The position numbers and the translations under genes are program-made. 64,000 nucleotides of DNA from Massariosphaeria phaeospora (taxonomy: Eukaryota; Ascomycota; Dothideomycetes; Pleosporales): NCBI GenBank assembly GCA_011032825.1, contig JAADJZ010000005.1, positions 1,989,001 to 2,053,000 on the forward strand, read 5' to 3'. The notes beneath the pieces were generated by a model. It saw only the letters and a program-made list of their open reading frames with translations. It was not told the DNA's origin and searched no databases. Below are positions 11,121 to 50,073 of this stretch, piece by piece (position 1 is the first letter of the stretch; each line of letters begins with the position of its first letter).

Positions 11121-11401
11121 GATGACGCGTGCGCAGAGGATCGAACAGTATTTGGGAGATTCAGGGCCGCAATATCATGATGCGCAAGCGCGTGAGCTGA
11201 TGGATGTTCGGTGGAGCGCGAGGTGCTGAAGCGTGCAGGCACTTAGCGCCGGATAAACCCTTCCGGGCCGCCGAGATTGCCAGGGTTGGCTCGGCCTTGG
11301 AGTCTGGACGACAATGTTCAATGTTTGGAGTTTGTCTGTTTCGACACAGTGCAAAACAGTTTCAAGGAATGGTCGGATTGTACTAGAGATACACAGCCCT
11401 A

Positions 11402-11444
11402 CCGTGTCCGTGCGCGCAACGCCCGGAGTCGCGCAACGCCCGAT
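11402..11444 (+). repeat. Left terminal inverted repeat of the pogo element
   Basis: 43 bp, identical to the reverse complement of 13492-13534. Adjacent TA at 11400-11401. Confidence 0.95.
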
Positions 11445-11489
11445 CACCAAAACAGCACCCACACTTCAACGCGTAACAACTCAACGGCC

Positions 11490-13373
11490 ATGGCACCTAT
11501 TGATGATGCGCTTGCAGCAATCAAAGCGCTAGACTCAAGAAAGAAACTTGTGTATCAAAAAATTGCTGATCAATTTGGTGTCGATCGCTCAACTTTGGCG
11601 CGGAGACACAAGGCTGTTCAGGCACCCCGAGAAACTAAAGACTCCAACCAGCAGAAGCTTACCCAACAACAGGAGGAGGAGCTTGTAAAGTATATAGAAG
11701 AGCTTACTGCTCGTCATATACCTCCTACAAGAGAGATGATCGCCAATTTCGCGTCAGCAGTCGCCCAGGAGCTAGTGAGCGAAAGCTGGGTTACCCGCTT
11801 TATCAACAAGTACTCTATCCATCTTATCTCTCAATACTCAACGGGGATGGACGCCAATCGCCACAACGCCGACTCCTACACAAAGTATGAGTTATATTTC
11901 AACCTACTACAACGCAAGATTGCTGAGTATAAGGTTGACGCTGAGCACACGTACAATATGGATGAGAAAGGCTTTATGATAGGAGTTACCTCAAGAACAA
12001 AGCATGTGTTCAGCCAACGTATGTGGGAGAAAAAGGAAGTCAAAGCATCACTCCAAGATGGCAATCGTGCCTGGTTGACGCTTATAGCGTGTGTGTGCGG
12101 CGATGGATCAGCTCTGCCGCCAGGCCTCCTCTACGAGTCCGCCAACAACACTATCCAATCAAGCTGGGTAGAGGAAATCAAGCCAGAGATACACTCTGTG
12201 CTTGTTTCCTCGTCACCTTCAGGGTGGATCAACAATGAGCTAGGCCTAGCTTGGCTTCAACAGGTGTTTGATCGCTTCACCAAGCAGAAAGCTCGAAGAA
12301 AGTACCGCCTATTGATCGTTGACGGCCACGGCTCTCATGTAACAATGGACTTTATCAACTACTGCGATCAGAACAAGATACTCCTGGCTATCCTTCCTCC
12401 TCATTCAACCCACACGCTGCAGCCGCTTGATAAGGTAATGTTCAAGCCTCTGTCAACTGCGTACTCAAAGGAGCTTACAACACACCTTCACAACGGCCAG
12501 GGGCTGTCAGTAATCAAGAAGAGCGACTTTTTTCACCTCTTCTGGAAGGCCTGGACAAGCACGTTTACTCAGGAGCTGATACTTAGGTCCTTTGAGGCAA
12601 CGGGTATATCACCCCTTCAGCCTAACGTTATCTTTTAACGCTTTGCTAAGGATACTCCTGAGGACTCTGATAGCAGCACAAGCTCTTCTTCAGTCTACTC
12701 TGGCAAGGATTGGCTTAAAATAGAGACTCTGTTACGCAAAGTCGCCAAAGATAAGAGCAGTAAGGAGCTAAGGAAGGTCAGCCGCTCGCTCCACTACATC
12801 TCAATTCAAAACTCTCTCCTCCACCACGAGATAGTAGGCCTTAAAGAGGTTCTTAAGACTCAGAAGAAGCACAAGAAGAAGAGCAAAGCTCTTGAGTTCA
12901 AGCCTCGCAAGGAGTATCATAGTGGGGCTGAGTTCTACTCTCCTAGTAGAGTAGAGAAGGCACGCTCTGATAAGAGGACTAAACAACAGAACCAGAGGGC
13001 AGAGGAACTTAGAAAAGCAGAGATGGCGAAGCTCAGACACGCTAATAAGCTGTACAATGAGAAGATTGCTCAGGAGAAGCGTGAGCAGCGCGCGAGGGAG
13101 AAAGCAGAGCGAGACTAAGTTAAAGCTAAGAAGGCTGAGGAAGCAGCTGAGCGCAAGGCTCAAAGAGAGCGTAATAAGCAAGCTTCTGACGCTGAAAAAG
13201 CTGTACAATTGCCTCAAAGAGGCAAGCGCAAGGCCTCACAGTCTGCTGCACCAAGAAAAAAGCAAAATCGTAGTGCAGTGGCTGCGCGGCGTGGTGTTGT
13301 TGCTGCAGAGCCTCCTGCCGCACCTCGCACCCACACTACCCGCAGCGGCAGAACAGCAACTCTATATAATTAA
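11490..13373 (+). pseudogene. Pogo/Fot1 transposase, two in-frame stops
   Basis: From the ATG at 11490 the frame runs to a final TAA at 13371, giving about 627 codons, but is broken by TAA at 12636 and TAA at 13116. The N-terminal part has the psq/CENP-B helix-turn-helix (KKLVYQKIADQFGVDRSTLARRHKA, about residues 17-41). The DDE domain follows: first Asp in YNMDEKGF, second in LLIVDGHGSHV, and a later acidic residue near HTLQPLDKVMF. The Lys/Arg/Glu-rich C-terminal coiled-coil tail lies beyond the first stop. Both stops could derive from CAA to TAA changes, which would fit repeat-induced point mutation, though the ancestral codons are inferred. Probably unable to make a full-length protein. 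Confidence 0.9.
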
Positions 13374-29277: not shown

Positions 29278-29324
29278 TATAAAGATCTCCAGTCTCGAAC
29301 ACTAAAAAGGCACAGTAACTATCT
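29278..29324 (+). promoter_or_regulatory. Array unit 1 core promoter
   Basis: TATAAAG at 29278, CACTAAAAAGG about 22 bp on, then ATG at 29325 opening a 26-codon ORF to 29405. The pyrimidine tract is weak. Confidence 0.4.
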
Positions 29325-29559
29325 ATGGGACGACAAGGTGCGAGATGCACAACCATAACATTCTGGGGCCGCTGCGTGTTTGCATGGAATCCAAGAAGCA
29401 CATAGGAGTCGGAAGTCGGACGTTGGAAGTCGGATTTAGAGGTAGTAGAGGACGCGACGTCGGGAAAGAGGGGAGAAGTAGATAATGCTGGACATCATCC
29501 TCGTCGCGTATTCGATTTTGGTTGGAGAGCTGTCTGATGTGAATTGTCCATCTAGAGGG

Positions 29560-29645
29560 TATATAAGCCCGCCCACTTCCTCTCCCCAAAGGTCACAGAG
29601 TCTTCACAGGTCCAGCGTGATAATAAAATCACAACAGACCTCCTG
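29560..29645 (+). promoter_or_regulatory. Array unit 2 core promoter
   Basis: TATATAAG at 29560, CCCGCCCACTTCCTCTCCCC tract, then ATG at 29646 opening a 55-codon Arg- and Cys-containing ORF to 29813. Confidence 0.5.
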
Positions 29646-29910
29646 ATGGAGCATCGAAAACAATGCGCCAAAACGACATGGCTTCTGCCGGCTGCAGCGT
29701 GGCGCCGAAATGCATCCAATGGAACCGCATGTGAGCTTCGCTGTTTTCGTCGTGCATCTAAGAGGTTGCCACACTTGGCGGCCATCGAAGATGCTGATGG
29801 GCAACTTGCTTAATGGATGATGAGGGCCGACAGCACGTGAAAAGGACGACAGGATATCAAGACGTGAGAGCGGGTACTTTGCGGCGCTCGTGGGAACTAG
29901 GCGTCGTGGG

Positions 29911-29999
29911 TATATAAGCCCCGCCCGCTCTTCTCCAACGACTTTCTGTACACACTTGAGGCTTCAAAGAGTGCTCTAAAAACTTAATTCCGCAGAACA
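29911..29999 (+). promoter_or_regulatory. Array unit 3 core promoter
   Basis: TATATAAG at 29911, CCCCGCCCGCTCTTCTCC tract, CTCTAAAAAC at 29974, ATG at 30000 opening an 18-codon ORF to 30056. Confidence 0.5.
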
Positions 30000-30473
30000 A
30001 TGACTGTCTTGAGAAAGGAATGCGGCGAGGTAGTATGTATACGGGTGAGTGTCTAGGCACATACCCGCATCTCCTGTGCGGCAAGGACATCCAGCAAAAT
30101 AAAACGTAGGTTTCTCGTTGTAGAGCTACATTGCAGACTCATTGCGAAAGTGTAGACCAGTTTGGTGGTGTAGTAATAGCATGCTGTTGTTTGGTCGATA
30201 CTACCGAGTGCTAACGTAGCTCTTTTCTCCTCCGCAACATCGAAATCGTCGACCCGAACGTGCACATACTAGGTTTGTTCCTCTCCAACACCTTCAAGTC
30301 CTTATACCTAGTACCTCTCTATTTCTTCTTATCATGGTTCATCGATACCCATGCTCACCAAAAGGAGGCCGCATCGCTCAGCCTTCCTGCTTTCTTCCCC
30401 ACTCGGACAAACATGCACTTTTTCCGCTTTCTTTTGAGGACATTCATGCTTTAGCAGTCCCAAGACTTCGCAT

Positions 30474-30562
30474 TTCAGGTTGCAATCTCCTTTTTAGAAA
30501 ATCTAGCGAAAGCAAGAGACTGAGTGTACCAAGTAAGAAGAGTCGGCCCATGGGCTTATATA
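30474..30562 (-). promoter_or_regulatory. Array unit 4 core promoter
   Basis: Minus-strand TATATAAG (30555-30562), TTCTAAAAAGG near 30500, ATG at 30473 opening a 9-codon ORF (30444-30473). Confidence 0.5.
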
Positions 30563-30768
30563 CCCGCATCCGAGAGTAAAACCAACATACTGCGAGTGTT
30601 CAGTCTTTTTACTTCACAGGGCGCACTGCATCATCATCTTCCATTGGCGGTTCACCACCGAAGCACCATGAAGATTCTCATCACTTTCTTCCCATAAGAA
30701 ACACTGCACAACGCATTTCTACATCCTTACGTCGTCGAGATTCCAACTGCTCTCTCTCTCCACACCAT

Positions 30769-30858
30769 GGACTTGTCGTCGTCGTTTTTGAAGACGCCAA
30801 GAGAAACAGTGTATTCAAGATTATAATCAAGTGGAGGTTAGGAAAGGGGGCTTATATA
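30769..30858 (-). promoter_or_regulatory. Array unit 5 core promoter
   Basis: Minus-strand TATATAAG (30851-30858), CTTCAAAAACG box, ATG at 30768 opening MVWRERAVGISTT (30727-30768). Confidence 0.5.
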
Positions 30859-30978
30859 CCTGTTTATGCGAAGGTTAACCATATTCTCGCAGCTAGTGGT
30901 AATAATCAGTGCTCATCATCTCATGCCCGCGTCTCACATGCACCCTCCGCGAACCATTTCTATTGATATGGTTGCCAT

Positions 30979-31057
30979 GTTTTTGTCTCCTTTTAGCGGT
31001 ACACTATGTGCAGTGTGGGAAAGATGAAACAAAGTCGCGGAGAGAGAGGATTATATA
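30979..31057 (-). promoter_or_regulatory. Array unit 6 core promoter
   Basis: Minus-strand TATATAAT (31050-31057), CACACTGCACATAGTG then CGCTAAAAGG, ATG at 30978 opening a 14-codon ORF (30934-30978). Confidence 0.5.
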
Positions 31058-31299
31058 CCCCTCCTTGTTGCGAAAGAACAGCCTATTCTCACCGCCGGTG
31101 GGAAAGGCGGGTCACGACCATGATGCTCACCACCACCATATTTTGTTTTCTTTTTTCTTCACACGGCCCGCGATCACTTTCTCGTTACCACTGTGTTCCT
31201 ATTTTCAGGTCATATAGCGTGCGAAGCGTCTCCCCTGACTTCCATGTGTGTGTGTGTTCGAACTTTTTTATTGCTCTCGCACTCCGCAACATCGGACAT

Positions 31300-31381
31300 C
31301 TTGTGGTGTCTTTTATTTTAGACACTGAAATGCGCAGTGAAGTGAATAGGAAGAAGGAGGTAGGAACAAGGGACTTATATA
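31300..31381 (-). promoter_or_regulatory. Array unit 7 core promoter
   Basis: Minus-strand TATATAAG (31374-31381), CACTGCGCATTTCAGTG then TCTAAAATAAAAG, ATG at 31299 opening a 29-codon ORF (31210-31299). A second ATG at 31292 is in another frame. Confidence 0.5.
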
Positions 31382-31462
31382 CCTGTCTCGCAGAGGGGTA
31401 AGACTTGGTCTCTGTCAAGAAAAGCAGTGTAGTAAGGAGCAGAAGGAGGTTGAACGAAGGGG

Positions 31463-31470
31463 CTTATATA
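31463..31470 (-). promoter_or_regulatory. Array unit 8, truncated duplicate of unit 7 promoter
   Basis: Minus-strand TATATAAG only 89 bp from that of unit 7. The flanks share CTTATATACCTGTCTCGCAG and GTCAAGAAAA/ATCAAGAAAA segments, so this is a recent partial duplication. Confidence 0.5.
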
Positions 31471-31588
31471 CCTGTCTCGCAGAGGTACAAGGATTCGTAA
31501 CCATCAAGAAAACCAACAATGATGATGCTCACCGTCTATACTTTCATGTTGAATACCTTGATTTCACTCCTCTCCAGCTCCACAACAT

Positions 31589-31673
31589 GAGTGGCAGCAG
31601 GATACCCTTTTAGAAGCGCTAGGAGCGTAATGTGGTGAAGCGTAAAAGGAGATTGAACGAAGGGGCTTATATA
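31589..31673 (-). promoter_or_regulatory. Array unit 9 core promoter
   Basis: Minus-strand TATATAAG (31666-31673), TTCTAAAAGG box, ATG at 31588 opening MLWSWRGVKSRYST (31544-31588). Confidence 0.5.
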
Positions 31674-31835
31674 CCCGTTTTCAAAGCAGAAAGAGAATTG
31701 CCGATCATCAAGAACGACAAGGATGATGATGCTCACCATCTTCTAGCTCCGTTTCTCTCTCCCGAGCGGCCCGAGCGGCCCGAGTCTACATATTCATAGC
31801 GAACAGAGTTTTGCTCCTTTCCAGCTCCACAACAT

Positions 31836-31923
31836 GGGGCAGTTTGGATAGTTTTTAGAGACACTACAGTGCGCAGTGCAGTGTAGTAGAGAAGAAGAAG
31901 AGTAAGAACAAGGGGCTTATATA
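31836..31923 (-). promoter_or_regulatory. Array unit 10 core promoter
   Basis: Minus-strand TATATAAG (31916-31923), CTACACTGCACTGCGCACTG, CTCTAAAAAC, ATG at 31835 opening MLWSWKGAKLCSL (31794-31835). Confidence 0.55.
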
Positions 31924-32084
31924 CCTGTCCATAGGAGTAAAGCTTAGTAATTTCAAACGTAACGATGATGATGCTCGCTATCTTTCCCCTGTGTCTTTCT
32001 TTCTGCGCAGATAGCGAATTCTCCGAGCAGCACATATCAATGTGCATCTTTGGGTGTTTTTCTTCTTCCTCCGCTCCACAACAT

Positions 32085-32177
32085 GTAATTGTTTGCTTCA
32101 CTTTTAAGGCACTGCAATGCCCAGTGCGGTGTAGTAGGGAAGAAGAAGAAGAAGAAGAAGAAGAAGGGGCTTATATA
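32085..32177 (-). promoter_or_regulatory. Array unit 11 core promoter
   Basis: Minus-strand TATATAAG (32170-32177) followed by CCCC and a CTT trinucleotide run. Then CTACACCGCACTGGGCATTG, a CCTTAAAAG box, and ATG at 32084 opening MLWSGGRRKTPKDAH (32037-32084). Confidence 0.55.
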
Positions 32178-32348
32178 CTCCCTTACGTAGCGGTCTGAGG
32201 CATAGCCACCGCTAGGAAGAGATTGGCGATGCTTGCCATTATGTTCTTTCCCCTCTCCTTCTTTCCTTCTAGGCGGAAATCGTCTTCTCTAAGCAGCACA
32301 CATCAACACGCGTACGTAAATCTTTATTTCTCTCCCGCCCCACAACAT

Positions 32349-32444
32349 GCTACGTCCATCTGGGATTTTTTAGAGGCGCTGAAATGTGCAGTGCAGTGTA
32401 GTAGAAGAAGCAGAAGGAAGAGACAGAAACAACGGGCTTATATC
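32349..32444 (-). promoter_or_regulatory. Array unit 12 core promoter
   Basis: Minus-strand GATATAAG (32437-32444), CTACACTGCACTGCACATTT, CTCTAAAAAA, ATG at 32348 opening a 19-codon ORF starting MLWGGRE (32289-32348). Confidence 0.5.
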
Positions 32445-32601
32445 CCTGTCTACCCAACTTTCGGGTAACGAAATGATGATGATGGTGCTCACCATCTTCT
32501 CTCTGACGCGCCCACCGCAGGACATGTCCTCGTGTTCCTATAACTACTCCAATGCCTATGGATTAAGTACATATGCAGAGACGTCTCCGTCCAGCACACA
32601 T

Positions 32602-32696
32602 GACGAATTGTCGTTCTGAGTTTTTAGAGGCACTGCTATGCGCAATACAATGTAGTAGAGAAAGAAAGACGTGGGTAAGAAAAAGGGGCTTATATA
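32602..32696 (-). promoter_or_regulatory. Array unit 13 core promoter
   Basis: Minus-strand TATATAAG (32689-32696), CTACATTGTATTGCGCATAG, CTCTAAAAAC, ATG at 32601 opening MCAGRRRLCICT (32563-32601). Confidence 0.5.
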
Positions 32697-32913
32697 CGCG
32701 TCTACCTCGCCTTCAGGCAAGCAAAACAATGATGCTCACCACCTTCTTTTCCACTGTTCTCTTTCATGATGTCTCCTTGTATTTCTTCTACTTTCTATCA
32801 GCACCATTGTGCGCACAGGTGGAGTACATCTTAGATAGCCGGCAGCGTCGCCGTCCAGCACACATAGCTTCTTTGTCATCACGGTTTCTTTTTTGCTCAC
32901 GCGCCCAAGACAT

Positions 32914-33009
32914 GTTCATAATTTCGATAGATTTTAGAGGCACTAAGAGCGCAGTGCAGTAGTAGAGAAGGAAGAGGAGCAGCGTGAGAAAGATGGGTTT
33001 ACATTTATG
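32914..33009 (-). promoter_or_regulatory. Array unit 14, TATA box degenerate
   Basis: The TATA position reads CATAAATG on the minus strand (33002-33009). The downstream tract, CTACTGCACTGCGCTC and CTCTAAAATC are kept. ATG at 32913 opens a 41-codon ORF starting MSWAREQ (32788-32913). It contains MCAGRRRCR, related to the unit 13 peptide. Confidence 0.45.
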
Positions 33010-33113
33010 ATGTCCGTGTGTCAGCTTGCGGAGTATAGAGATGAAGAGAGGACCACTTGTGCCTGGTGTCGAAATTTGGAGGACATGACGAAGTAAATGG
33101 CATCCGGGAGGGG

Positions 33114-33185
33114 TATAAAGATCCCTCTTCGTGCTCTTACTCTCCTTTCCTTCTACAACACCGCATCGAGCGTCTAAACTCTAAA
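33114..33185 (+). promoter_or_regulatory. Array unit 15 core promoter
   Basis: TATAAAG at 33114, pyrimidine tract ending CTACAACACC, CTCTAAAATG, ATG at 33186 opening a 15-codon ORF to 33233. First unit of the right-hand plus-strand block. Confidence 0.5.
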
Positions 33186-33275
33186 ATGATATCGATTCTA
33201 GAGCATAGAGAAAAGACGACGGTGGCGCTCTAAACTTGATTTCCAGAATTGTGTTGTTGTATATGGTGATGATGA

Positions 33276-33380
33276 TATAAAGACCCCTCTTCTGCACCCT
33301 TACTTCGACACCCTTCCCTCCTTCCTGTCCCCACAGCACCTTGTGTGCGTGTGTCTAAAAATTTGTGAAAACCAGGTTCG
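33276..33380 (+). promoter_or_regulatory. Array unit 16 core promoter
   Basis: TATAAAG at 33276, ACCCCTCTTCTGC tract, GTCTAAAAATTT, ATG at 33381 opening a 24-codon ORF starting MFEILKTLKH (to 33455). Confidence 0.55.
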
Positions 33381-33620
33381 ATGTTCGAAATCCTCAAGAC
33401 CTTGAAACATGGCCGGAAGCCCGCCACGCTGCTCGGAGTCGTAGTTCGTTCGTGAGGAGGACATGGTGATGGTGATGAGCGATTTCATCGATGGCCGGAA
33501 GCCGCCGCTGTTCGGACTCGTGAAAGAGCAACCGTAGTTCATTCGGAATGACGAGATAGTAATGGTGATGCTAACCACCATTCCAGCAACCAAACCGCAC
33601 AGCACGTGCACATACACAGG

Positions 33621-33714
33621 TATAAAGACCCCCCTTCAACACCCACACTTACTCCTCTCTCTCACAACACCTCGACTCGTCGAGTTTGTCTAAAAAGAAA
33701 CTTTCTAGGGTAAC
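33621..33714 (+). promoter_or_regulatory. Array unit 17 core promoter
   Basis: TATAAAG at 33621, ACCCCCCTTCAACACCC tract, CACAACACC, a CTCGACTCGTCGAG near-palindrome, GTCTAAAAAG, ATG at 33715 opening a 28-codon ORF starting MFGSVESICA (to 33801). Confidence 0.55.
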
Positions 33715-33915
33715 ATGTTTGGAAGTGTTGAGAGTATCTGTGCATGTTGGAAGATTGTCGCGGTGCTTGCAGTCGTGGAGGCGGAGTTGAAGTGTGTGTG
33801 AGGTGAGGTGAGGTGAGGAGAGGTAAGGCGAGGAGAGGTGATGGTGATGATGATGATCAACACGTCAACTTGAAATCGTGTAAGGCGTAACGTATGCAGA
33901 CACCAATTGTAGACG

Positions 33916-33997
33916 TATAAAGACGCCACCCCCTATTTCCCTCCCTATTACTTCCCTACCGCTCAGAGCACACCAAGGCCCTCCCAAAACAGGGCAC
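33916..33997 (+). promoter_or_regulatory. Array unit 18 core promoter
   Basis: TATAAAG at 33916, pyrimidine tract, no clear CTCTAAAAA box, ATG at 33998 opening a 68-codon ORF that ends inside the next TATA box (34204). Confidence 0.45.
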
Positions 33998-34199
33998 ATG
34001 GTGTTGCATGTCGAAATTCAACATGATATACTACCCCATGTGGGACGTGGCTGCCGTGTTCCAACCCCTAGAGTTAAGAGCATGATATGTGCGGGCTTGC
34101 TTGAAGATATCACTCACCATCAACTCCGACTCCATTCCAGTGCGCGCCCAAGCCACCCACCAACAGCAAAGCGGCCAGGCCAGGTATACCCGAAATTCC

Positions 34200-34289
34200 T
34201 ATAAAGACCCCCCCTCCTCGCACCCTTCTTCCTTCTCTCTACCACAACACCTTGATCCAGCGTCTCTAAAATCATCGAGAAACAACCTC
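34200..34289 (+). promoter_or_regulatory. Array unit 19 core promoter
   Basis: TATAAAG at 34200, ACCCCCCCTCC tract, CCACAACACC, CTCTAAAATC, then ATG at 34290 followed at once by TTC TGA, so the ORF is lost in this unit. Confidence 0.5.
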
Positions 34290-34457
34290 ATGTTCTGAAA
34301 CCGACAGTTTGGAAGCCTATGGGGAAGCAGCTGCGGTGCGCTCGCTCAGCGTCGACCTTGTGGCATAGCAGCGGCAAAATCAATGATAATGATGAACGGA
34401 CTCCAGCAGAACACTTGCTTACTACAACACCGCAGCTACAAGCTCGCTGAGCACACA

Positions 34458-34538
34458 TATAAAACCCTTGCGTCATACTCTCCTTTCTACCCCGCACAAC
34501 ACTCCAATCCCCTTATAAAACGAACAGGAAACTCGCGG
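34458..34538 (+). promoter_or_regulatory. Array unit 20 core promoter
   Basis: TATAAAA at 34458, pyrimidine tract, GCACAACAC, then CTTATAAAAC where other units have CTCTAAAAA. ATG at 34539 gives only Met-Ala-stop. Confidence 0.45.
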
Positions 34539-34706
34539 ATGGCGTAAAAAACTCCACTTCGCCGCGCTCGATGGGGATCTGCGGTGCGGTGCAGTGCAAT
34601 CCCCGAAACTTCAAAGTCGACCCTGTCATGTTACACACGACCATGGCGATCACCACCTTCATCCAAACTCTAGGACGAAAGACGAATCCTACGTTGGAGC
34701 TGCGGG

Positions 34707-34801
34707 TATAAAGGTCCCTCTGCTGCTATGTGCTATTGCTTCTTCTGAATTCTACCGGCGACCGCGGCTGGAGCTTGTAAAAAAACCAAACAACAAGCTA
34801 A
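34707..34801 (+). promoter_or_regulatory. Array unit 21 core promoter
   Basis: TATAAAG at 34707, GTCCCTCTGCTGC tract, TTGTAAAAAAACC, ATG at 34802 opening a 60-codon ORF starting MFWKKFAEMI that ends in the next TATA box (34984). Confidence 0.5.
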
Positions 34802-34977
34802 ATGTTCTGGAAAAAGTTTGCTGAAATGATAAATGTGGGGAGGGAAGTAGTTGCTGTGTTCGAGGCTGTAGATGCGGGGACGTGGGTTGGCTTGGTGGAT
34901 ATGGTAATGATGGCGATGACGATGGCAATCCGCTTCAGTGCTCCAGCAATGCGACAAGCTGAGTTGAGCGACGAAGG

Positions 34978-35062
34978 TATATAGTTCCCCTCCTTCCTGC
35001 ACCCCTTGCTTCCCTCGACCACAACGCCTCTCCCATCTCCAAAATCCAGAAACTGGACCTTT
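34978..35062 (+). promoter_or_regulatory. Array unit 22 core promoter
   Basis: TATATAG at 34978, TTCCCCTCCTTCCTGC tract, CCACAACGCC, CTCCAAAATCC, ATG at 35063 opening an ORF that starts MFQIGRILKY and runs on into later units. Confidence 0.5.
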
Positions 35063-35257
35063 ATGTTCCAAATCGGCAGGATCTTGAAATATGGTGCGGG
35101 GGTGGTGGCTGCGGTGCGCGAGATCGGGAATCCAATTGCGTTTGATCGTGATTATGCCGATGCTCAACACCTAGAGGCTGCTTCAACGGTTATGCATACC
35201 ACCACACACTCCTCACCTACTCACCCTCCGCGAACGCTTTGCTGCAAGACGGGCGGG

Positions 35258-35353
35258 TATAAAAACCCTCCCCTCGTCGAACCACTCTTTCCATCCCTCA
35301 CAACAGCAGCAAAGCAAGCACCCAGAGTCTCTAAAAACAGTATCAGCGCTTGC
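35258..35353 (+). promoter_or_regulatory. Array unit 23 core promoter
   Basis: TATAAAAA at 35258, CCCTCCCCTCGTCG tract, TCACAACAGC, TCTCTAAAAACAG at 35328, ATG at 35354 (MFLKDRVSML). Confidence 0.5.
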
Positions 35354-35569
35354 ATGTTCCTAAAAGACAGAGTGTCCATGTTAATGGAAAGACGGCGGGG
35401 ACGGAGCGGCGGCATCTCATTGTCGAACGTGCATGGTAGTAGTAAAGCCAATACTGATGATGGTGGACATCACCAGCTGCGTGACCCATGCGCCCTTCTA
35501 CCCCTTTCGTCGACTCCGTATGCTATGTCTGACGTAGGCTGGAGAACACACGTGTTTAGCTTGAGAGCG

Positions 35570-35669
35570 TATAAAGATCCCCCCTCGCAGCCCCAGTTCC
35601 CGACTTTTCCTCTCCACGGCATTCCATGTTAACATGGCAAGTCTAAAAAATATTACTAATGATATTATT
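35570..35669 (+). promoter_or_regulatory. Array unit 24 core promoter
   Basis: TATAAAG at 35570, ATCCCCCCTCGC tract, GTCTAAAAAA at 35641, ATG at 35670 opening MWTTGGEA. An earlier ATG at 35626 lies before the box. Confidence 0.45.
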
Positions 35670-35827
35670 ATGTGGACGACTGGTGGGGAGGCCTGACGTA
35701 TGAAGATTAATGTGTGGTTCCTGTCGGACCGTAGTGAGTGATGATGATTTATTCTTGGTGTTGAAAATGATGATGATGATGATGCGTGTCGTCAAGCGTG
35801 AGGTGATGAGGCTGGGGGCAGGAGGGG

Positions 35828-35908
35828 TATATAGATCCCTCGTCGGCTTGATGTCTCCTGCCTCCCATAGAGTTGTGGGTGTCGAACAAAACTAGAGCGA
35901 CATTCGAC
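35828..35908 (+). promoter_or_regulatory. Array unit 25 core promoter
   Basis: TATATAG at 35828 after a GATGATGATGATG run (35767-35782), ATCCCTCGTCGGC tract, ATG at 35909 opening a 22-codon ORF starting MLKNEQRYVQ (to 35977). Last clear unit. Confidence 0.45.
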
Positions 35909-36122
35909 ATGTTAAAAAATGAACAAAGATACGTTCAATGGGGAGAGACGCGGCGGGCGGTGTTTGAGATCAAGTAAGTGACCTGTAGATTGCTCTTGTA
36001 AATGGTGGTGATGATCTTCGCGAGATTCATGATGATGATGACAATATAGTTCTTGGTGTCGGGTATTACGGAGAAGCCTGCCGCGCACTACAGCTTCGAC
36101 CAGACGGTAAAAGCGGCATGCA

Positions 36123-37196
36123 TTAGACCTGAAACGCCACTCCCTCCCTCTTGACCATATTCTTCCCCCCGCTCACAAACCCCGTCCCCTCGCTCCTAAT
36201 CTCGACCAACCCCGGCTTCGGGCCCCTCTCCTTGTCCTTCTTGTGCTTCTTCCCCTGCTTCTCGTTCGGCGGCGACAAATCCGCATCGCAAACAAAGCAA
36301 TGCACACTCTCGGGCTCTGGATCCCGGTCATGTGCATCTCTCTGATGTCGATGTTCCGGCTTCATGAACTTGTCGACGCAGGGCTTGCACAGGACGTGGC
36401 CGCAGGGTATTGCTACTACCGCTTTTGAGGAGTTCGACAATGATTTCTTGCAACTCGGACAGATTCGCTGTTGTTTCGCTGTTTCGGCCGACTTTTCTTC
36501 TGTGAAGTGGACTGACGTGAGGCCTTTGAGGGACAGTGCATGGGGGTTCGCCGGGTCGCTGGATGGGCAGATAGGATTCTGTTTTGCTTTCGCGGCCTCC
36601 TTGTGGTCGGTGTCGGGTGCTTGCGACGGTACCCAGAAGCTTGGCAGATGACCCTTTGCAGCTTTCTTCTCCTCGTCGAGTGCCAGCTTTGCGCGACTCC
36701 GTTCCGCGAGCGCAATGCGCTTCAGCTCCTCCTCATCGATCTCGAATTTCCGCTTCTTGCCTCTATTCTCACCCCCCTCAGTCGTATCGTCCTGCTCAAC
36801 AACGACCTTGCCGCCGTCCCTGCCCACGACCTTCGAGCCTGCACCGACTTTGACTTCCAACCCCATTTGCACGGCTTCAAAGTCCTGCACAGCGCGTAGC
36901 TTCGCTTCCTCGTTGTCTCGGTCTTTCTCGTCTTCTTCGTCTAGTTTCCTCCTCTCTGTCGCTTTCTCGAGCCGCTTCATCTCTTTCCGCTGGGCGAGGA
37001 GGTTCGTCATGGCGCATTCGCGGCAGAAGAGATCGCCGGAGGGACAGCAGACGGGGTCGACTGATGGGAGGAGACATAGTTGGCAGCTACCGAACGGCAG
37101 GAAGGAGTCGCGGGTCAGGCGTGTGGATTGGGCGCCCCATGAGTTCTTGAGGGTGTTTCGCTCGTACGAGGTGAAAACTGATTGTTGAGTTGGCAT
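36123..37196 (-). CDS. NOSIP-like RING/U-box protein
   Basis: A single open frame of 357 aa from the ATG at 37196. The N-terminal block (NTLKNSWGAQSTRLTRDSFLPFGSCQLCL, then VDPVCCPSGDLFCRECA) is the half-RING of the nitric-oxide-synthase-interacting protein family. A charged coiled coil follows (LAQRKEMKRLEKATERRKLDEE). A second zinc-binding region lies near the C-terminus (CPSCKKSL, IPCGHVLCKPCVDKF, CFVCDADL). Animal NOSIP is an E3 ubiquitin ligase linked to the spliceosome. In fungi a nuclear ubiquitin-ligase-like role is inferred. The ATG at 37196 is the first in frame; the longer frame to 37238 opens on TTG. It is divergent from tafazzin with 199 bp between starts. Confidence 0.88.
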   Translation of the reverse strand: MPTQQSVFTSYERNTLKNSWGAQSTRLTRDSFLPFGSCQLCLLPSVDPVCCPSGDLFCRECAMTNLLAQRKEMKRLEKATERRKLDEEDEKDRDNEEAKLRAVQDFEAVQMGLEVKVGAGSKVVGRDGGKVVVEQDDTTEGGENRGKKRKFEIDEEELKRIALAERSRAKLALDEEKKAAKGHLPSFWVPSQAPDTDHKEAAKAKQNPICPSSDPANPHALSLKGLTSVHFTEEKSAETAKQQRICPSCKKSLSNSSKAVVAIPCGHVLCKPCVDKFMKPEHRHQRDAHDRDPEPESVHCFVCDADLSPPNEKQGKKHKKDKERGPKPGLVEIRSEGTGFVSGGKNMVKREGVAFQV

Positions 37197-37395
37197 GGTC
37201 GTTTGGTAGAATTGGTGCGGGATAAGGCTTACAGGCAAGAGAGTTGTTGTACTTGCTACGTAAATCTGCAGTTATAGAGTTGGATTGATACCAGAATCAG
37301 TGAGGTCGGAGCTTCGGCATCTTCGCGGTCGCCACAGGTGGCTGATGTGATGGCCCAAGCTCCCACCCCTGCCCCATCAAGTCGGAAGTTACGTG

Positions 37396-46431: not shown

Positions 46432-49400
46432 ATGGCCGAAGCTTTAGTTGTTGTCAGCGTTGTTGCTAGTATTGTCCAGCTAGTTGATTTCAGCACTAGA
46501 GTTGTATCCCGCTTGGACGACTTTTATTCTGTCGCTAAAGAGGTTCCTGAGTCATTTCGCCATGTCAAGACTGAGTTGCCATTATTGGCAACCACGCTTG
46601 CACAACTAAAGGGGTCCATCAGTACGACTTCGGTAGCCGACAAATCCACGGAGGCCCTTGTGCCTGTTATAGCAGGATGCAACGAACAAGTCACGCAGCT
46701 AGACGCTATCCTTAAGAAGACGTTACCAGAGGCGAACGACAGTTTGCGCATAAAGAGCAAGAAAGCAATAGTGAGCCTGCACTATGACTCTAAGGTGGAG
46801 AGCATTACAAAGACATTGCGAAACTACGTTGGAATCCTAACGTTCTACTATGCTGCTGCGTTGTCCACTCTACAGCCACTTACAGGTAGTCCTCTTAAAG
46901 TTACTATATACTTTTCGTTCTAACTATTCTATAGATGTAAAACTATGTAAGATCCGACAGTGGTTATCTGCACCGGATCCGTCAACAAACTACCAGAAAG
47001 CACTTAAGCTACGGCAGGCTGATACTGGGCTTTGGTTCCTTGAGAGCGATGCATACACAAGATGGAAGAGTGCCGCTACAACACCTCTCTGGCTCTATGG
47101 GATTCCCGGATGCGGCAAGACTATCCTAAGCTCTACAGTATTGCAAGATGTACACCAACATTGTCAGGATGACCCTGGGAAAGTAATAGCGTATTTCTTC
47201 TTCGACTTTAACGACGTAAAAAAGCAGAATCCAGAGATGATGGTGCGTTCGTTGCTGTGCCAACTCTCACAGCAATCCATCAAGGTTCCAGCAAGTCTCG
47301 ACGCCCTATTCTCTTCGTGCGAAAGCGGGCAGCGGCAGCCATCAACTCGTGCACTTGTGGATGCACTGCAATCAATAATACAGGATCTCCCGCAGATCTA
47401 TATCGTGCTCGATGCTCTGGACGAATGCGCTGAGCGCGTAGAGCTGATGGAAATGTTTGAAATGACGGTGAAATGGAAAGTACCAAACCTGCACCTCCTA
47501 GTGACGAGCAGAAGAGAGCGAGACATCGAGAGCTCACTCGAGGGCTGTTTGGATCCGCAGAACAGCATCTGTCTTCAAAGTAAGGTAGTCGACAAAGACA
47601 TACAGCACTACGTGCGGCAAAGGCTGTCGGACGACAAGGCCTTGAGCAAGTGGAGCAAAGACATCGCTCTCCGGCAAGAAATCGAGACGGCTCTAATGGA
47701 GGGCTCCAAGGGAATGTGTGTGTCCTGATAAGTTCTAGGACGTCCAATGCTGATAGCAGTGCTAGGTTCCGATGGGCCGTGTGCCAGCTAGACACGCTGG
47801 GAAAGTGTCGCAATCGAGCGATGCTACGGAAAGCACTGGCAGCACTACCGCCAACATTAGACACGACTTATGACCGGATCATGTGTGCCATCGCCGAAGA
47901 AGACGTTGACTATGCCATCCGCGTCCTGCAGTGGCTGGCGTTCTCAGATCGGCCACTTGCGGTAGACGAGGTCGCGGAAGTGATCGCTATCGACGTGGCA
48001 CGCGATCCTGCATTCGATCGAGAGGAAGTGCTCGAAGACCCTCTAGAGGCTCTAGACATCTGCTCTAGTCTTGTCACCATCGCAACAGACGATAGCAACG
48101 GAAGGCTAGAGTCAACAAGGCAAGTCGCCGTGCTTGCGCACTACTCTGTCAAGGAGTACCTCGTCTCCGACAGGATCCAACGAGGCCAGGCAGCGCGATA
48201 CAGCATGCAAATTGCAGCGTGCCACAGTACGATAGCTAAAGCGTGCCTAGAATACCTTGGTCAGTTCCAGAAGCCCGGGCCTATAGCAGAGGATATGTTC
48301 GGCAAGTGCAAACTAGCACGATACTCAGCGGAGTTCTGGTTGAGCCACGCTCAGAAAGCAGGGGATCGAGCAGCGGAAACGAGCTGGGCTGCACCTGCAC
48401 TTCGTCTGCTGTCAAGGGATAACGCTGCGTACTTGAACTGGATCCGAATACATAATCCTGACAGACCCTGGGAGGGGTCCAAATTTGAAAGAGTAATAGA
48501 GAGAACACCAAATCCACTCTACTATACAGCACTCTACGGTCTGGAAGAAGTGACAAGGCTGCTGCTAGACGAGGGCGCCGACGTCAACGCCCAAGGTGGA
48601 AGATACGGCAACGCACTCCAGGCGGCTTCATCGGGAGGCCACGAGGCAGTGGTAAGGCTTCTGGTGGACAAAGGCGCCGACGTCAACGCCCAGGGTGGAG
48701 ATTACAGCAACGCACTCCAGGTGGCTTCATGGGGAGGCCACGAGGCAGTGGTAAGGCTTCTGGTGGACAAAGGCGCCGACGTCAACGCTCAGGGTGGACA
48801 CTACGGCAACGCACTCCAGGCGGCTTCAGAGGGAGGCCACGAGGCAGTGGTAAGGCTTCTGGTGGACAAAGGCGCCGACGTCAACGCCCAGGGTGGAGAT
48901 TACAGCAACGCACTCCAGGTGGCTTCATGGGGAGGCCACGAGGCAGTAGTGAGGCTTCTAGTAGACAAAGGCGCCGACGTCAACGCCCAGGGTGGAGATT
49001 ACAGCAACGCACTCCAGGCGGCTTCATCAGGAGGCCACGAGGCAGTAGTGAGGCTTCTGGTAGACAAAGGCGCCGACGTCAACGCTCAGGGTGGACACTA
49101 CGGCAACGCACTCCAGGCGGCTTCATCAGGAGGCCACGAGGCAGTGGTAAGGCTTCTGGTGGACAAAGGCGCCGACGTCAACGCCCAGGGTGGACACTAC
49201 GGCAACGCACTCCAGGTGGCTTCATGGGGAGGCCACGAGGCAGTGGTAAGGCTTCTGGTGGACAAAGGCGCCGACGTCAACGCCCAGGGTGGACACTACG
49301 GCAACGCACTCCAGGCGGCTTCATCAGGAGGCCACGAGGCAGTAGTGAGGCTTCTAGTAGACAAAGGCGCCGACGTTAACGCCCAGGGTGGATTTTATGA

Positions 49401-50073
49401 CAACGCACTCCAGGCGGCTTTAAAGGGAGGCCACGAGGCAGTAGTGAGGCTTCTAGTGGACAAGGGCGCCGACGTCAACGCTCAGGGTGGACACTACGGC
49501 AACGCACTCCAGGCGGCTTTACTAGGAGGCCACGAGGCAGTAGTGAGGCTTCTAGTAGACAAAGGCGCCGACGTCAACGCCCAAGGTGGAGATTACAGCA
49601 ACGCACTCCAGGTGGCTTCATGGGGAGGCCACGAGGCAGTGGTAAGGCTTCTGGTGGACAAAGGCGCCGACGTCAACGCTCAGGGTGGACACTACGGCAA
49701 CGCACTCCAGGCGGCTTCATCAGGAGGCCACGAGGCAGTGGTAAGGCTTCTGGTAGACAAAGGCGCCGACGTTAACGCCCAGGGTGGATTTTATGACAAC
49801 GCACTCTGTGCGGCTTCATCAGGAGGCCACGAGGCAGTAGTGAGGCTTCTGGTAGACAAAGGCGCCGACGTCAACGCCCAGGGTGGAGATTGCAGCAACG
49901 CACTCCAGGCGGCTTCATGGAGAGGCCACGAGGCAGTGGTAAGGCTTCTGGTAGACAAAGGCGCCAACGTCAACGCTCAGGGTGGAAGATACGGCAACGC
50001 ACTCCAGGCGGCTTCATCGAGAAGCCACGAGGCAGTGGTGAGGCTTCTGGTAGACAAAGGTGCTGTCACGTAA
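46432..50073 (+). CDS. NACHT/ankyrin STAND protein (fungal NOD-like receptor)
   Basis: Three exons (46432-46885, 46935-47715, 47766-50073) join in frame to 1180 aa. Residues about 1-150 (MAEALVVVSVVASIVQLVDF ...) are the all-helical SesA/NACHT_N-type signalling domain. The NTPase starts near LWLYGIPGCGKTIL (P-loop about residue 207), with Walker B IYIVLDALDEC (about 306) and the sensor TSRRE. The winged-helix region follows (LAALPPTLDTTYDRIM). From about residue 671 come 15 ankyrin repeats of 33 aa, nearly identical at DNA level, then a partial repeat ending GAVT. Fungal proteins of this layout act in non-self recognition and heterokaryon incompatibility. This role is inferred from family. 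Confidence 0.93.
48562..50070 (+). repeat. 99-bp tandem repeats encoding ankyrin units
   Basis: About 15 copies of a 99-bp unit (GGHEAVVRLLVDKGADVNAQ, then GGxYxNALQxAxx). The first 20 residues are almost invariant. Differences concentrate at the residue after GG (R/D/H/F), two residues later (G/S/D), at A/V after LQ, and in the last residues (SS, SW, SE, LK, LL). This indicates concerted evolution with a few variable surface positions. Confidence 0.95.

What the first reader, a model, noticed from the sequence alone, without database searches (positions are those of the whole stretch)
29278..35977. Tandem array of about 25 diverged TATA-box mini-genes
Over 6.7 kb, TATATAAG or TATAAAG boxes recur mostly every 200-340 bp. 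In most units the box is followed in fixed order by CCCC/pyrimidine tract, ACAACACC or ACTACACTGC, a CTCTAAAAA-like box and an ATG within about 100 bp. The spacers are poorly conserved while the boxes remain, which suggests selection on promoter function. This is not a satellite of identical copies, and no transposase, rRNA or tRNA signature is visible. I know of no described fungal locus of this form. It could make many short coding or non-coding RNAs, or be a decaying family of tiny genes.
Basis: partly seen in the sequence, partly recalled or inferred. Interest (0 to 1): 0.93.

Follow-up and report, generated by a model that had tools for sequence, protein, structure and literature searches.

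The report
Promoter-led arrays of variable RNA cassettes
A fungal genome carries many clusters of tiny promoter units, each followed by short cassettes in which two fixed boxes frame a different 17-18-letter sequence, an arrangement that looks like a family of small non-coding RNAs with exchangeable guide-like segments and that matched no known kind in the searches made.

Summary
In 29,278-36,000 there are 24 TATA units plus one TATA-less relic, in three strand blocks (+3, -10, +11): 20 TATAWARR boxes against 1.1 in shuffles. (1) It is genome-wide: TATATAAG followed by CTAAAA occurs 149 times in this 42-Mb Pleosporales genome, 0 for the reversed pattern; for a related pattern 58 of 82 hits lie within 5 kb of another. 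(2) No coding signal follows the ATG. (3) The conserved core is a cassette, AAAA - 17 to 18 unconstrained bases - ATG. The boxes keep their distance (386 pairs at 21-24 bp against about 17 per other position), recur at about 45-50 bp, and lie on the promoter's strand, mostly downstream. 389 of 391 variable segments are distinct. A weak hairpin of varying sequence precedes the first box. No Rfam family matches. Best reading: Pol II-type tiny non-coding RNA genes whose variable segments sit between two protein-recognised boxes, possibly as guides. Transcription, level of action (RNA or DNA) and targets are unproven.

The parts
29278..30002 (+). Plus block 1: three units, TATA at 29278, 29560, 29911; cassettes AAAA>ATG at 29304>29325, 29625>29646, 29657>29678, 29978>30000
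32599..32696 (-). Minus unit: TATATAAGCCCC 32696, TCTAAAA box 32627, ATG 32601
32346..32444 (-). Minus unit: GATATAAG 32444, box 32373, ATG 32348
32082..32177 (-). Minus unit: TATATAAG 32177, box 32107, ATG 32084
31789..31923 (-). Minus unit: TATA 31923, box 31858, ATG 31835; second cassette AAAA 31812 > ATG 31791
31586..31673 (-). Minus unit: TATA 31673, box 31613, ATG 31588
31243..31470 (-). Two minus TATA boxes 89 bp apart (31470, 31381); box 31321; cassettes AAAA 31314 > ATG 31292 and 31269 > 31245
30976..31057 (-). Minus unit: TATATAAT 31057 with CTAAAA and ATG at a non-standard distance
30766..30858 (-). Minus unit: TATA 30858, AAAA 30789 > ATG 30768 (a further cassette AAAA 30610 > ATG 30588)
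30412..30562 (-). Minus unit: TATA 30562, box 30497, ATG 30473; second cassette AAAA 30435 > ATG 30414
32911..33003 (-). Relic unit without TATA; TCTAAAA with AAAA at 32935, ATG 32913
33114..33190 (+). Plus block 2, unit 1: TATAAAG 33114, GTCTAAA box 33174
33276..33383 (+). Unit: TATA 33276, box 33355, ATG 33381; GGTGATGATGAT element directly upstream
33621..33717 (+). Unit: TATA 33621, hairpin CTCGA-CTCG-TCGAG, box 33690, ATG 33715
33916..34010 (+). Unit: TATA 33916, AAAA 33986, ATG 34008
34200..34292 (+). Unit: TATA 34200, box 34266, ATG 34290
34458..34541 (+). Unit: TATA 34458, AAAA 34517, ATG 34539
34707..34835 (+). Unit: TATA 34707, cassettes AAAA 34779 > ATG 34802 and 34811 > 34833
34978..35065 (+). 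Unit: TATATAG 34978, AAAA 35041, ATG 35063
35258..35386 (+). Unit: TATA 35258, box 35331, ATG 35354; second cassette AAAA 35362 > ATG 35384
35570..35672 (+). Unit: TATA 35570, perfect palindrome CATGTTAACATG, box 35643, ATG 35670 (27 nt after the box, longer than usual)
35828..35940 (+). Unit: TATATAG 35828, cassettes AAAA 35888 > ATG 35909 and 35914 > 35938

Best explanation
Each unit is a tiny RNA polymerase II-type, non-coding transcription unit. TATATAAG/TATAAAG plus a pyrimidine tract directs initiation near the ACACA block (about 40 bp after the TATA). The RNA starts with a short hairpin whose sequence is free, then UCUAAAA, then one to six cassettes [AAAA - 17 or 18 free nucleotides - AUG - G/U-rich linker]. 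I propose that a protein or RNP grips the A box and the AUG box and that the fixed-length free segment is the specificity part of the RNA, as a guide is, so the many units give the cell a large set of different short segments. Shown: boxes, order, strand, fixed box distance, unconstrained segment, absence of a coding signal, a modest hairpin signal, clusters at many places of the genome. Inferred: that the units are transcribed and by which polymerase, that the boxes act in RNA rather than DNA, and that the variable segment pairs with a target.
For: Genome-wide layout: 149 strict hits versus 0 for the reversed pattern, 82 versus 1 for a related pattern, 58 of those 82 within 5 kb of another, about 1.5 expected at random. 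ATG at 23-26 nt after the CTAAAA start: 105 ATGs at these four offsets among 132 units, 0-7 at each other offset from 6 to 69; s.d. of that distance 0.86 in the 106 units selected by an ATG at 22-28, against 10.0 for the TATA-box distance. Second cassettes repeat the distance: 56 of 78 at 21-25. 386 AAAA>ATG pairs at 21-24 in array sequence versus 17.3 per other position; no peak on the antisense of units. Strand bias 481:43 summed over 23 loci, each counted by its majority strand (from 31:1 and 23:0 to 17:6 and 9:4). Cassettes 5.09/kb between the first TATA of a locus and 600 bp past the last, versus 0.44 for a shifted distance; 1.11/kb upstream. 389 of 391 segments distinct, near-even base use. 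Hairpin window: mean z -0.70, t -6.7; per-array p = 5e-4, 20 of 22 arrays. No coding signal. Chance matches in viral and prokaryote DNA lack the other features: CT tract and ATG together in 1 of 27 and 0 of 80 versus 22 of 32 in fetched loci.
Against: No transcript data. The hairpin effect is modest; an upstream spacer used as control also gave a small excess (mean z -0.30, t -2.3). Sense and antisense do not differ (p = 0.21; A-C mismatches no rarer than G-U in best stems), so RNA and DNA action are not separated. The variable segment is no more diverged than ordinary spacer, so free filler of fixed length fits as well as a selected guide. Two of two segments tested found no near-perfect partner in the genome beyond chance (one hit with 2 mismatches, about 0.5 expected by my own arithmetic). 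No internal pairing of the segment. The genome count for TCTAAAA-N17..19-ATGK (292) exceeds the shifted distance (58) but not the reversed-pattern control (299). All data are from one genome, and the stretches read were chosen by the motif. 33 of 165 units have no recognised CTAAA box.
Confidence: 0.42

Rival explanations
1. The cassette is a bipartite DNA site: a protein binds AAAA and ATG on one face of the helix two turns apart (about 21 bp), and the bases between are only a ruler. The arrays would be chromosomal binding arrays (recombination, chromatin or replication) with promoters that open them.
For: The distance is close to two helical turns with +-1 bp tolerance; the segment is as free as spacer; hairpin strength does not differ between the strands.
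Against: Cassettes keep the orientation of the promoter and lie mostly downstream of it, which a DNA site need not do.
Confidence: 0.25
2. The cassettes are tandem poly(A)/3'-end signals: A-rich element, about 20 nt, CA/UA cleavage site, GU-rich element. Each unit would be a promoter closed at once by terminators and give very short polyadenylated RNAs.
For: A-rich box, about 20 nt, then often a pyrimidine-A and a G/T-rich stretch (after ATG: G 0.35, T 0.28).
Against: The distance is more constant than such signals usually are (recalled), the nearly invariant TG after the A is unexplained, and the same arrangement is not clearly enriched in the rest of the window: 17 hits outside 28.5-36.2 kb on both strands, against about 10 and 12 for two shifted distances in the bins outside the array.
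Confidence: 0.1
3. A decaying or neutral tandem expansion of a strong core promoter, without function.
For: Units lack boxes here and there, one has lost its TATA, blocks are inverted; local subfamilies indicate tandem duplication.
Against: The array of the window has no blastn match elsewhere, yet arrays at other places keep the same boxes, distances and hairpin position.
Confidence: 0.13
4. A family of tiny protein-coding genes or variable first exons starting at the ATG.
For: The ATG is nearly invariant; segments after it are somewhat conserved within an array.
Against: Frame 0 is hardly longer than frames 1 and 2 (means 21.1, 19.9, 19.7 codons); mismatches flat over codon positions; second ATGG flat modulo 3.
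Confidence: 0.04

Closest known systems
Type-I 21U-RNA (piRNA) genes of Caenorhabditis elegans
   Same: Very many tiny loci, each with its own upstream motif, clustered, with unrelated sequences behind a fixed element (individual transcription from an own upstream motif seen in a passage of PMC6468775; number and clustering recalled).
   Different: TATA/CT promoter rather than the nematode motif; several cassettes per promoter; a box on both sides of the segment; a hairpin; no evidence here of mature small RNA.
CRISPR repeat-spacer arrays
   Same: Leader/promoter followed by fixed-length unique spacers between recurring boxes.
   Different: The repeat is only two short boxes with a linker of variable length; some segments are seen to be inherited with local duplications; eukaryotic chromosome; no match to invader DNA shown. 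Analogy of layout only.
Box C/D guide RNAs
   Same: Two short boxes frame a guide; often two guide positions per RNA (recalled); doublets are common here (100 doublets).
   Different: Boxes AAAA/AUG instead of RUGAUGA/CUGA; no Rfam match at gathering score and only weak sub-threshold ones.
Core promoters of strongly expressed filamentous-fungal genes
   Same: TATA box, pyrimidine tract and start region of this general type (recalled); a gene in L046 whose start reads like a secretion signal (my reading) has TATATAG, a CT-rich stretch and an ATG.
   Different: That gene shows no CTAAAA-18-ATG cassette and codes for protein.

Membership tests
C. elegans type-I 21U-RNA genes | Individual upstream motif for each RNA | tested here: inconclusive
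   165 TATA+CT units in the fetched loci and window, but one promoter often leads several cassettes and the motif differs from the nematode one (recalled)
C. elegans type-I 21U-RNA genes | Mature 21-nt 5'-U RNA bound to a Piwi protein | not testable with these tools
CRISPR array | Near-identical direct repeats | tested here: not met
   Only boxes recur; linkers from ATG to the next AAAA are 10-51 nt and loosely alike
CRISPR array | Unique spacers of fixed length | tested here: met
   389 of 391 distinct, AAAA>ATG 21-24 (that range is part of the search rule, its peak is shown)
CRISPR array | Spacers match foreign DNA; cas genes | not tested
   Only two segments were searched, in the own genome
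Box C/D snoRNA | RUGAUGA and CUGA boxes with terminal stem; Rfam match | tested here: not met
   Boxes are AAAA and ATG; no Rfam family at gathering score in the window, weak sub-threshold hits only in the array and in L045, L055, L056 (one of them a C/D snoRNA model at 20.9 bits, cut-off 60)
Box C/D snoRNA | Guide complementary to rRNA | not tested
   Own-genome rRNA searches gave no answer
Protein-coding gene family | Open, frame-conserved coding sequence after the ATG | tested here: not met
Satellite DNA | Near-identical tandem copies | tested here: not met
   Tandem Repeats Finder reports only two short simple arrays within 29,278-35,977; units of other arrays align poorly outside the boxes
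General poly(A) signal | Same element around ordinary genes of this genome | tested here: inconclusive
   17 hits in the window outside the array against about 10 and 12 for shifted distances; no mapped 3' ends

The most novel reading that the evidence does not exclude
A eukaryotic repeat-spacer guide-RNA system: promoter-led non-coding RNA genes (165 units and 391 clustered cassettes read here, more in the genome) carry several hundred different 17-18-nt guides, each held between an A box and an AUG box, used by an unknown RNP for target recognition (defence, silencing or RNA modification).
Probability: 0.18. Interest if true: 0.97.

Novelty: categorically new. Interest (0 to 1): 0.86.

Why it matters
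If the units are transcribed, a filamentous fungus has a large, diverse family of small non-coding RNA genes built on a two-box fixed-length cassette that fits no family found here. Either outcome of the guide question would be informative: guides would add a new eukaryotic RNA-guided system; a DNA ruler would add a new kind of chromosomal array. The architecture gives exact, cheap predictions (RNA ends, box mutants, binding at 21-24 nt).

Tried and rejected
Coding peptides after the ATG: rejected by frame, codon-position and stop tests. The repeated MLWSW-like starts of several minus units I take as a DNA-level repeat after the ATG, since no frame is kept over all units. RNA family: none at gathering score, weak hits only. 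Pairing of the variable segment within its unit: observed score equals shuffled (15.94 versus 15.94). Near-perfect genomic partners for two segments: none beyond chance. 13-mers of segments in held DNA: 26 segments with other sites, by eye chance, low complexity or local duplicates, although the number of extra 13-mer hits (182) is well above shuffled segments (11.1). Similarity of the array DNA to other loci: none at E <= 1 for two of its stretches (the second hit lies in the array itself). A common flanking gene: 5 of 9 flank ORFs tested have a Pfam family, all different (sorting nexin, Vps35, fungal TF, RTC4, OPT). The first formulation 'hypervariable segment evolves faster than neutral' was dropped: it is only as diverged as spacer. 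The 'CT part' row is meaningless (zero variance). The reversed-pattern control (299) is as high as the count (292), so I rely on the shifted distance and on clustering. Paper searches showed no description of such arrays in the titles and abstracts listed; only listings were seen, and for only 15, 8, 8 and 6 of 336, 17, 43 and 693 papers were listed.
Full report
WHERE. The window is C45:1,989,001-2,053,000 of a 42.08-Mb, 51-contig genome. The flanking NOSIP-like protein (36,123-37,271, minus) has its best named matches in Pleosporales, 76% identity to Lindgomyces and 74% to Clohesyomyces (the order is recalled), so the host is taken to be a dothideomycete fungus. No tRNA and no Rfam family at gathering score lie in the window.

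OBSERVATION. Reading 28.5-36.7 kb and scanning both strands gives 24 TATA units and one TATA-less relic in three strand blocks: plus (29278, 29560, 29911), minus (32696, 32444, 32177, 31923, 31673, 31470, 31381, 31057, 30858, 30562) and plus (33114, 33276, 33621, 33916, 34200, 34458, 34707, 34978, 35258, 35570, 35828). The counts are far above 300 dinucleotide shuffles of the region, and the other 55.8 kb of the window hold 1 TATA+CT unit. The order TATA, pyrimidine tract, ACACA-like block, CTAAAA, ATG is as described.

GENOME-WIDE. The pattern TATAWARRNNCCN{35,65}TCTAAAA has 82 hits and its reversal 1; 58 of the 82 lie within 5 kb of another hit, 1.5 expected for random places, and they fall on 18 contigs. 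TATATAAGNNCYN{38,68}CTAAAA has 149 hits and its reversal 0 (only the first places were listed). Two stretches of the array have no blastn match elsewhere in the genome at E <= 1, so other arrays share the layout and not the sequence. I read 23 stretches picked from the hits; not all hit regions could be fetched. With the window they hold 207,520 bases, 73 strict hits and 165 units by a looser rule. By simple proportion the genome would have roughly 340 units and 800 cassettes; this is an extrapolation from regions selected by the motif.

ANATOMY. Of 165 units, 132 have a CTAAA/YTAAAA box at +45 to +125 (33 dropped). The distance from TATA to TAAAA has a median of 71 (134 units). An ATG follows 23-26 nt after the box start (105 ATGs at these offsets for 132 units, 0-7 at each other offset from 6 to 69), although ATG was not used to select units. 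After it come a G/T-rich stretch, a further AAAA, and again about 22 nt to an ATG: 56 of 78 second cassettes at 21-25. In array sequence, both strands, AAAA>ATG has a sharp peak at 21-24 (71, 136, 122, 57 against 17.3 per other position), with no peak on the antisense of the units. Sequence that I had masked as non-array also showed the peak (50, 64, 58, 28 against 15.3), and by locus this comes from arrays that extend beyond recognised TATA boxes; within the window outside the array there are 17 hits on both strands against about 10 and 12 for two shifted distances. Cassettes keep one strand per locus: 481 on the majority strand and 43 on the other over 23 loci, with weaker cases such as 17:6 (L044) and 9:4 (L052). 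The typical pitch is 45-50 bp, and clustered cassettes come as 116 singles, 100 doublets and 22 longer runs up to six. Density is 5.09/kb between the first TATA of a locus and 600 bp past the last, 1.11/kb upstream and 1.35/kb beyond, against 0.44, 0.24 and 0.16 for a shifted distance (21 of 23 loci; L043 and L052 had no recognised TATA on that strand); 30 of the 46 upstream cassettes are in L038, L044 and L050. Upstream of TATA, GATGATG/GGTGATG-type elements peak 40-120 bp away, mainly in one orientation (GATGATG in 44 of 164 upstream stretches, its complement in 11).

VARIABLE SEGMENT. Between AAAA and ATG the base frequencies are nearly even. 389 of 391 clustered segments are distinct; the one repeated sequence belongs to a short local tandem repeat. 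Near-identical segments within a locus were seen in L040, L044, L047 and L056, so segments can be inherited with local duplication. Between units of one array the segment shows the least excess identity (0.005, against 0.060 after the ATG, 0.036 in the hairpin region, 0.015-0.042 in spacers, and 0.007 in another downstream stretch). It is therefore unconstrained in sequence but fixed in length. It is not shown to evolve faster than neutral.

HAIRPIN. The 30 nt before the box fold better than shuffles (-4.25 versus -2.69 kcal/mol with mononucleotide shuffles, 132 units; mean z -0.70, t -6.7 with dinucleotide shuffles, 113 units). An upstream spacer control was also slightly negative (z -0.30, t -2.3), the variable segment and the stretch after the ATG were not. 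Counting arrays instead of units, 20 of 22 are negative, p = 5e-4; a control window gives p = 0.53. The stems differ in sequence from array to array. The antisense strand is also better than shuffles (p = 0.015) and does not differ significantly from the sense strand, so this does not separate RNA from DNA.

NOT CODING. After the ATG the open lengths are 21.1, 19.9 and 19.7 codons in the three frames (120 units); mismatches between related units fall 66/60/64 on codon positions (32 pairs), and early stops are equal (19, 23, 23 of 106).

CONTROLS. The same TATA-box pattern in viral contigs (27 stretches) and prokaryote genomes (80 loci read) rarely has a CT tract (2 and 4) or the ATG (1 and 1), whereas the fetched own-genome loci have 30 and 24 of 32. 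Genome-wide, TCTAAAA-N17..19-ATGK occurs 292 times and N27..29 58 times; the reversed-pattern controls are 299 and 208, so only the comparison of distances and the clustering carry weight.

MECHANISM. The fixed orientation to and position after the promoter favour action in the transcript; the distance near two helical turns leaves a DNA reading open. I commit to small non-coding RNA genes whose variable segment is held between two recognised boxes (0.42), with the guide system as the boldest step (0.18).

KNOWN KINDS. The layout resembles 21U-RNA genes (passages of PMC6468775), CRISPR arrays and box C/D guides, but each fails or lacks a defining test (see the membership table). Seven paper searches (listings only, often a small part of the papers found) gave no description of such arrays; most subscription papers are not in that library, and names and motifs of known systems are recalled.

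Noticed in passing
window 46841-50073 (+): NACHT-type NTPase (NPHP3_N/NACHT) followed by an ankyrin repeat region of about fifteen 99-bp units with 90% matches, as in repeat-bearing fungal NLR-like proteins.
   Followed up: partly
window 11247-12638 (+): Transposase-like ORF with DDE_1 and HTH_Tnp_Tc5 domains.
   Followed up: no
L055 (C45:1978500-1986000) and C45:2072-2077 kb: A further array of the same kind lies about 4 kb left of the window (read), and pattern hits lie about 20 kb right of it (not read).
   Followed up: partly
L048:7316-7390: A 13-bp tandem repeat (CTGGAGATGAAAA) inside an array mimics cassettes and gives the only repeated variable segment.
   Followed up: yes
window 36000-36050: GGTGATGATC/GATGATGATGA-type upstream element followed by a degenerate ATATAG without further boxes, perhaps a dead last unit.
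   Followed up: no
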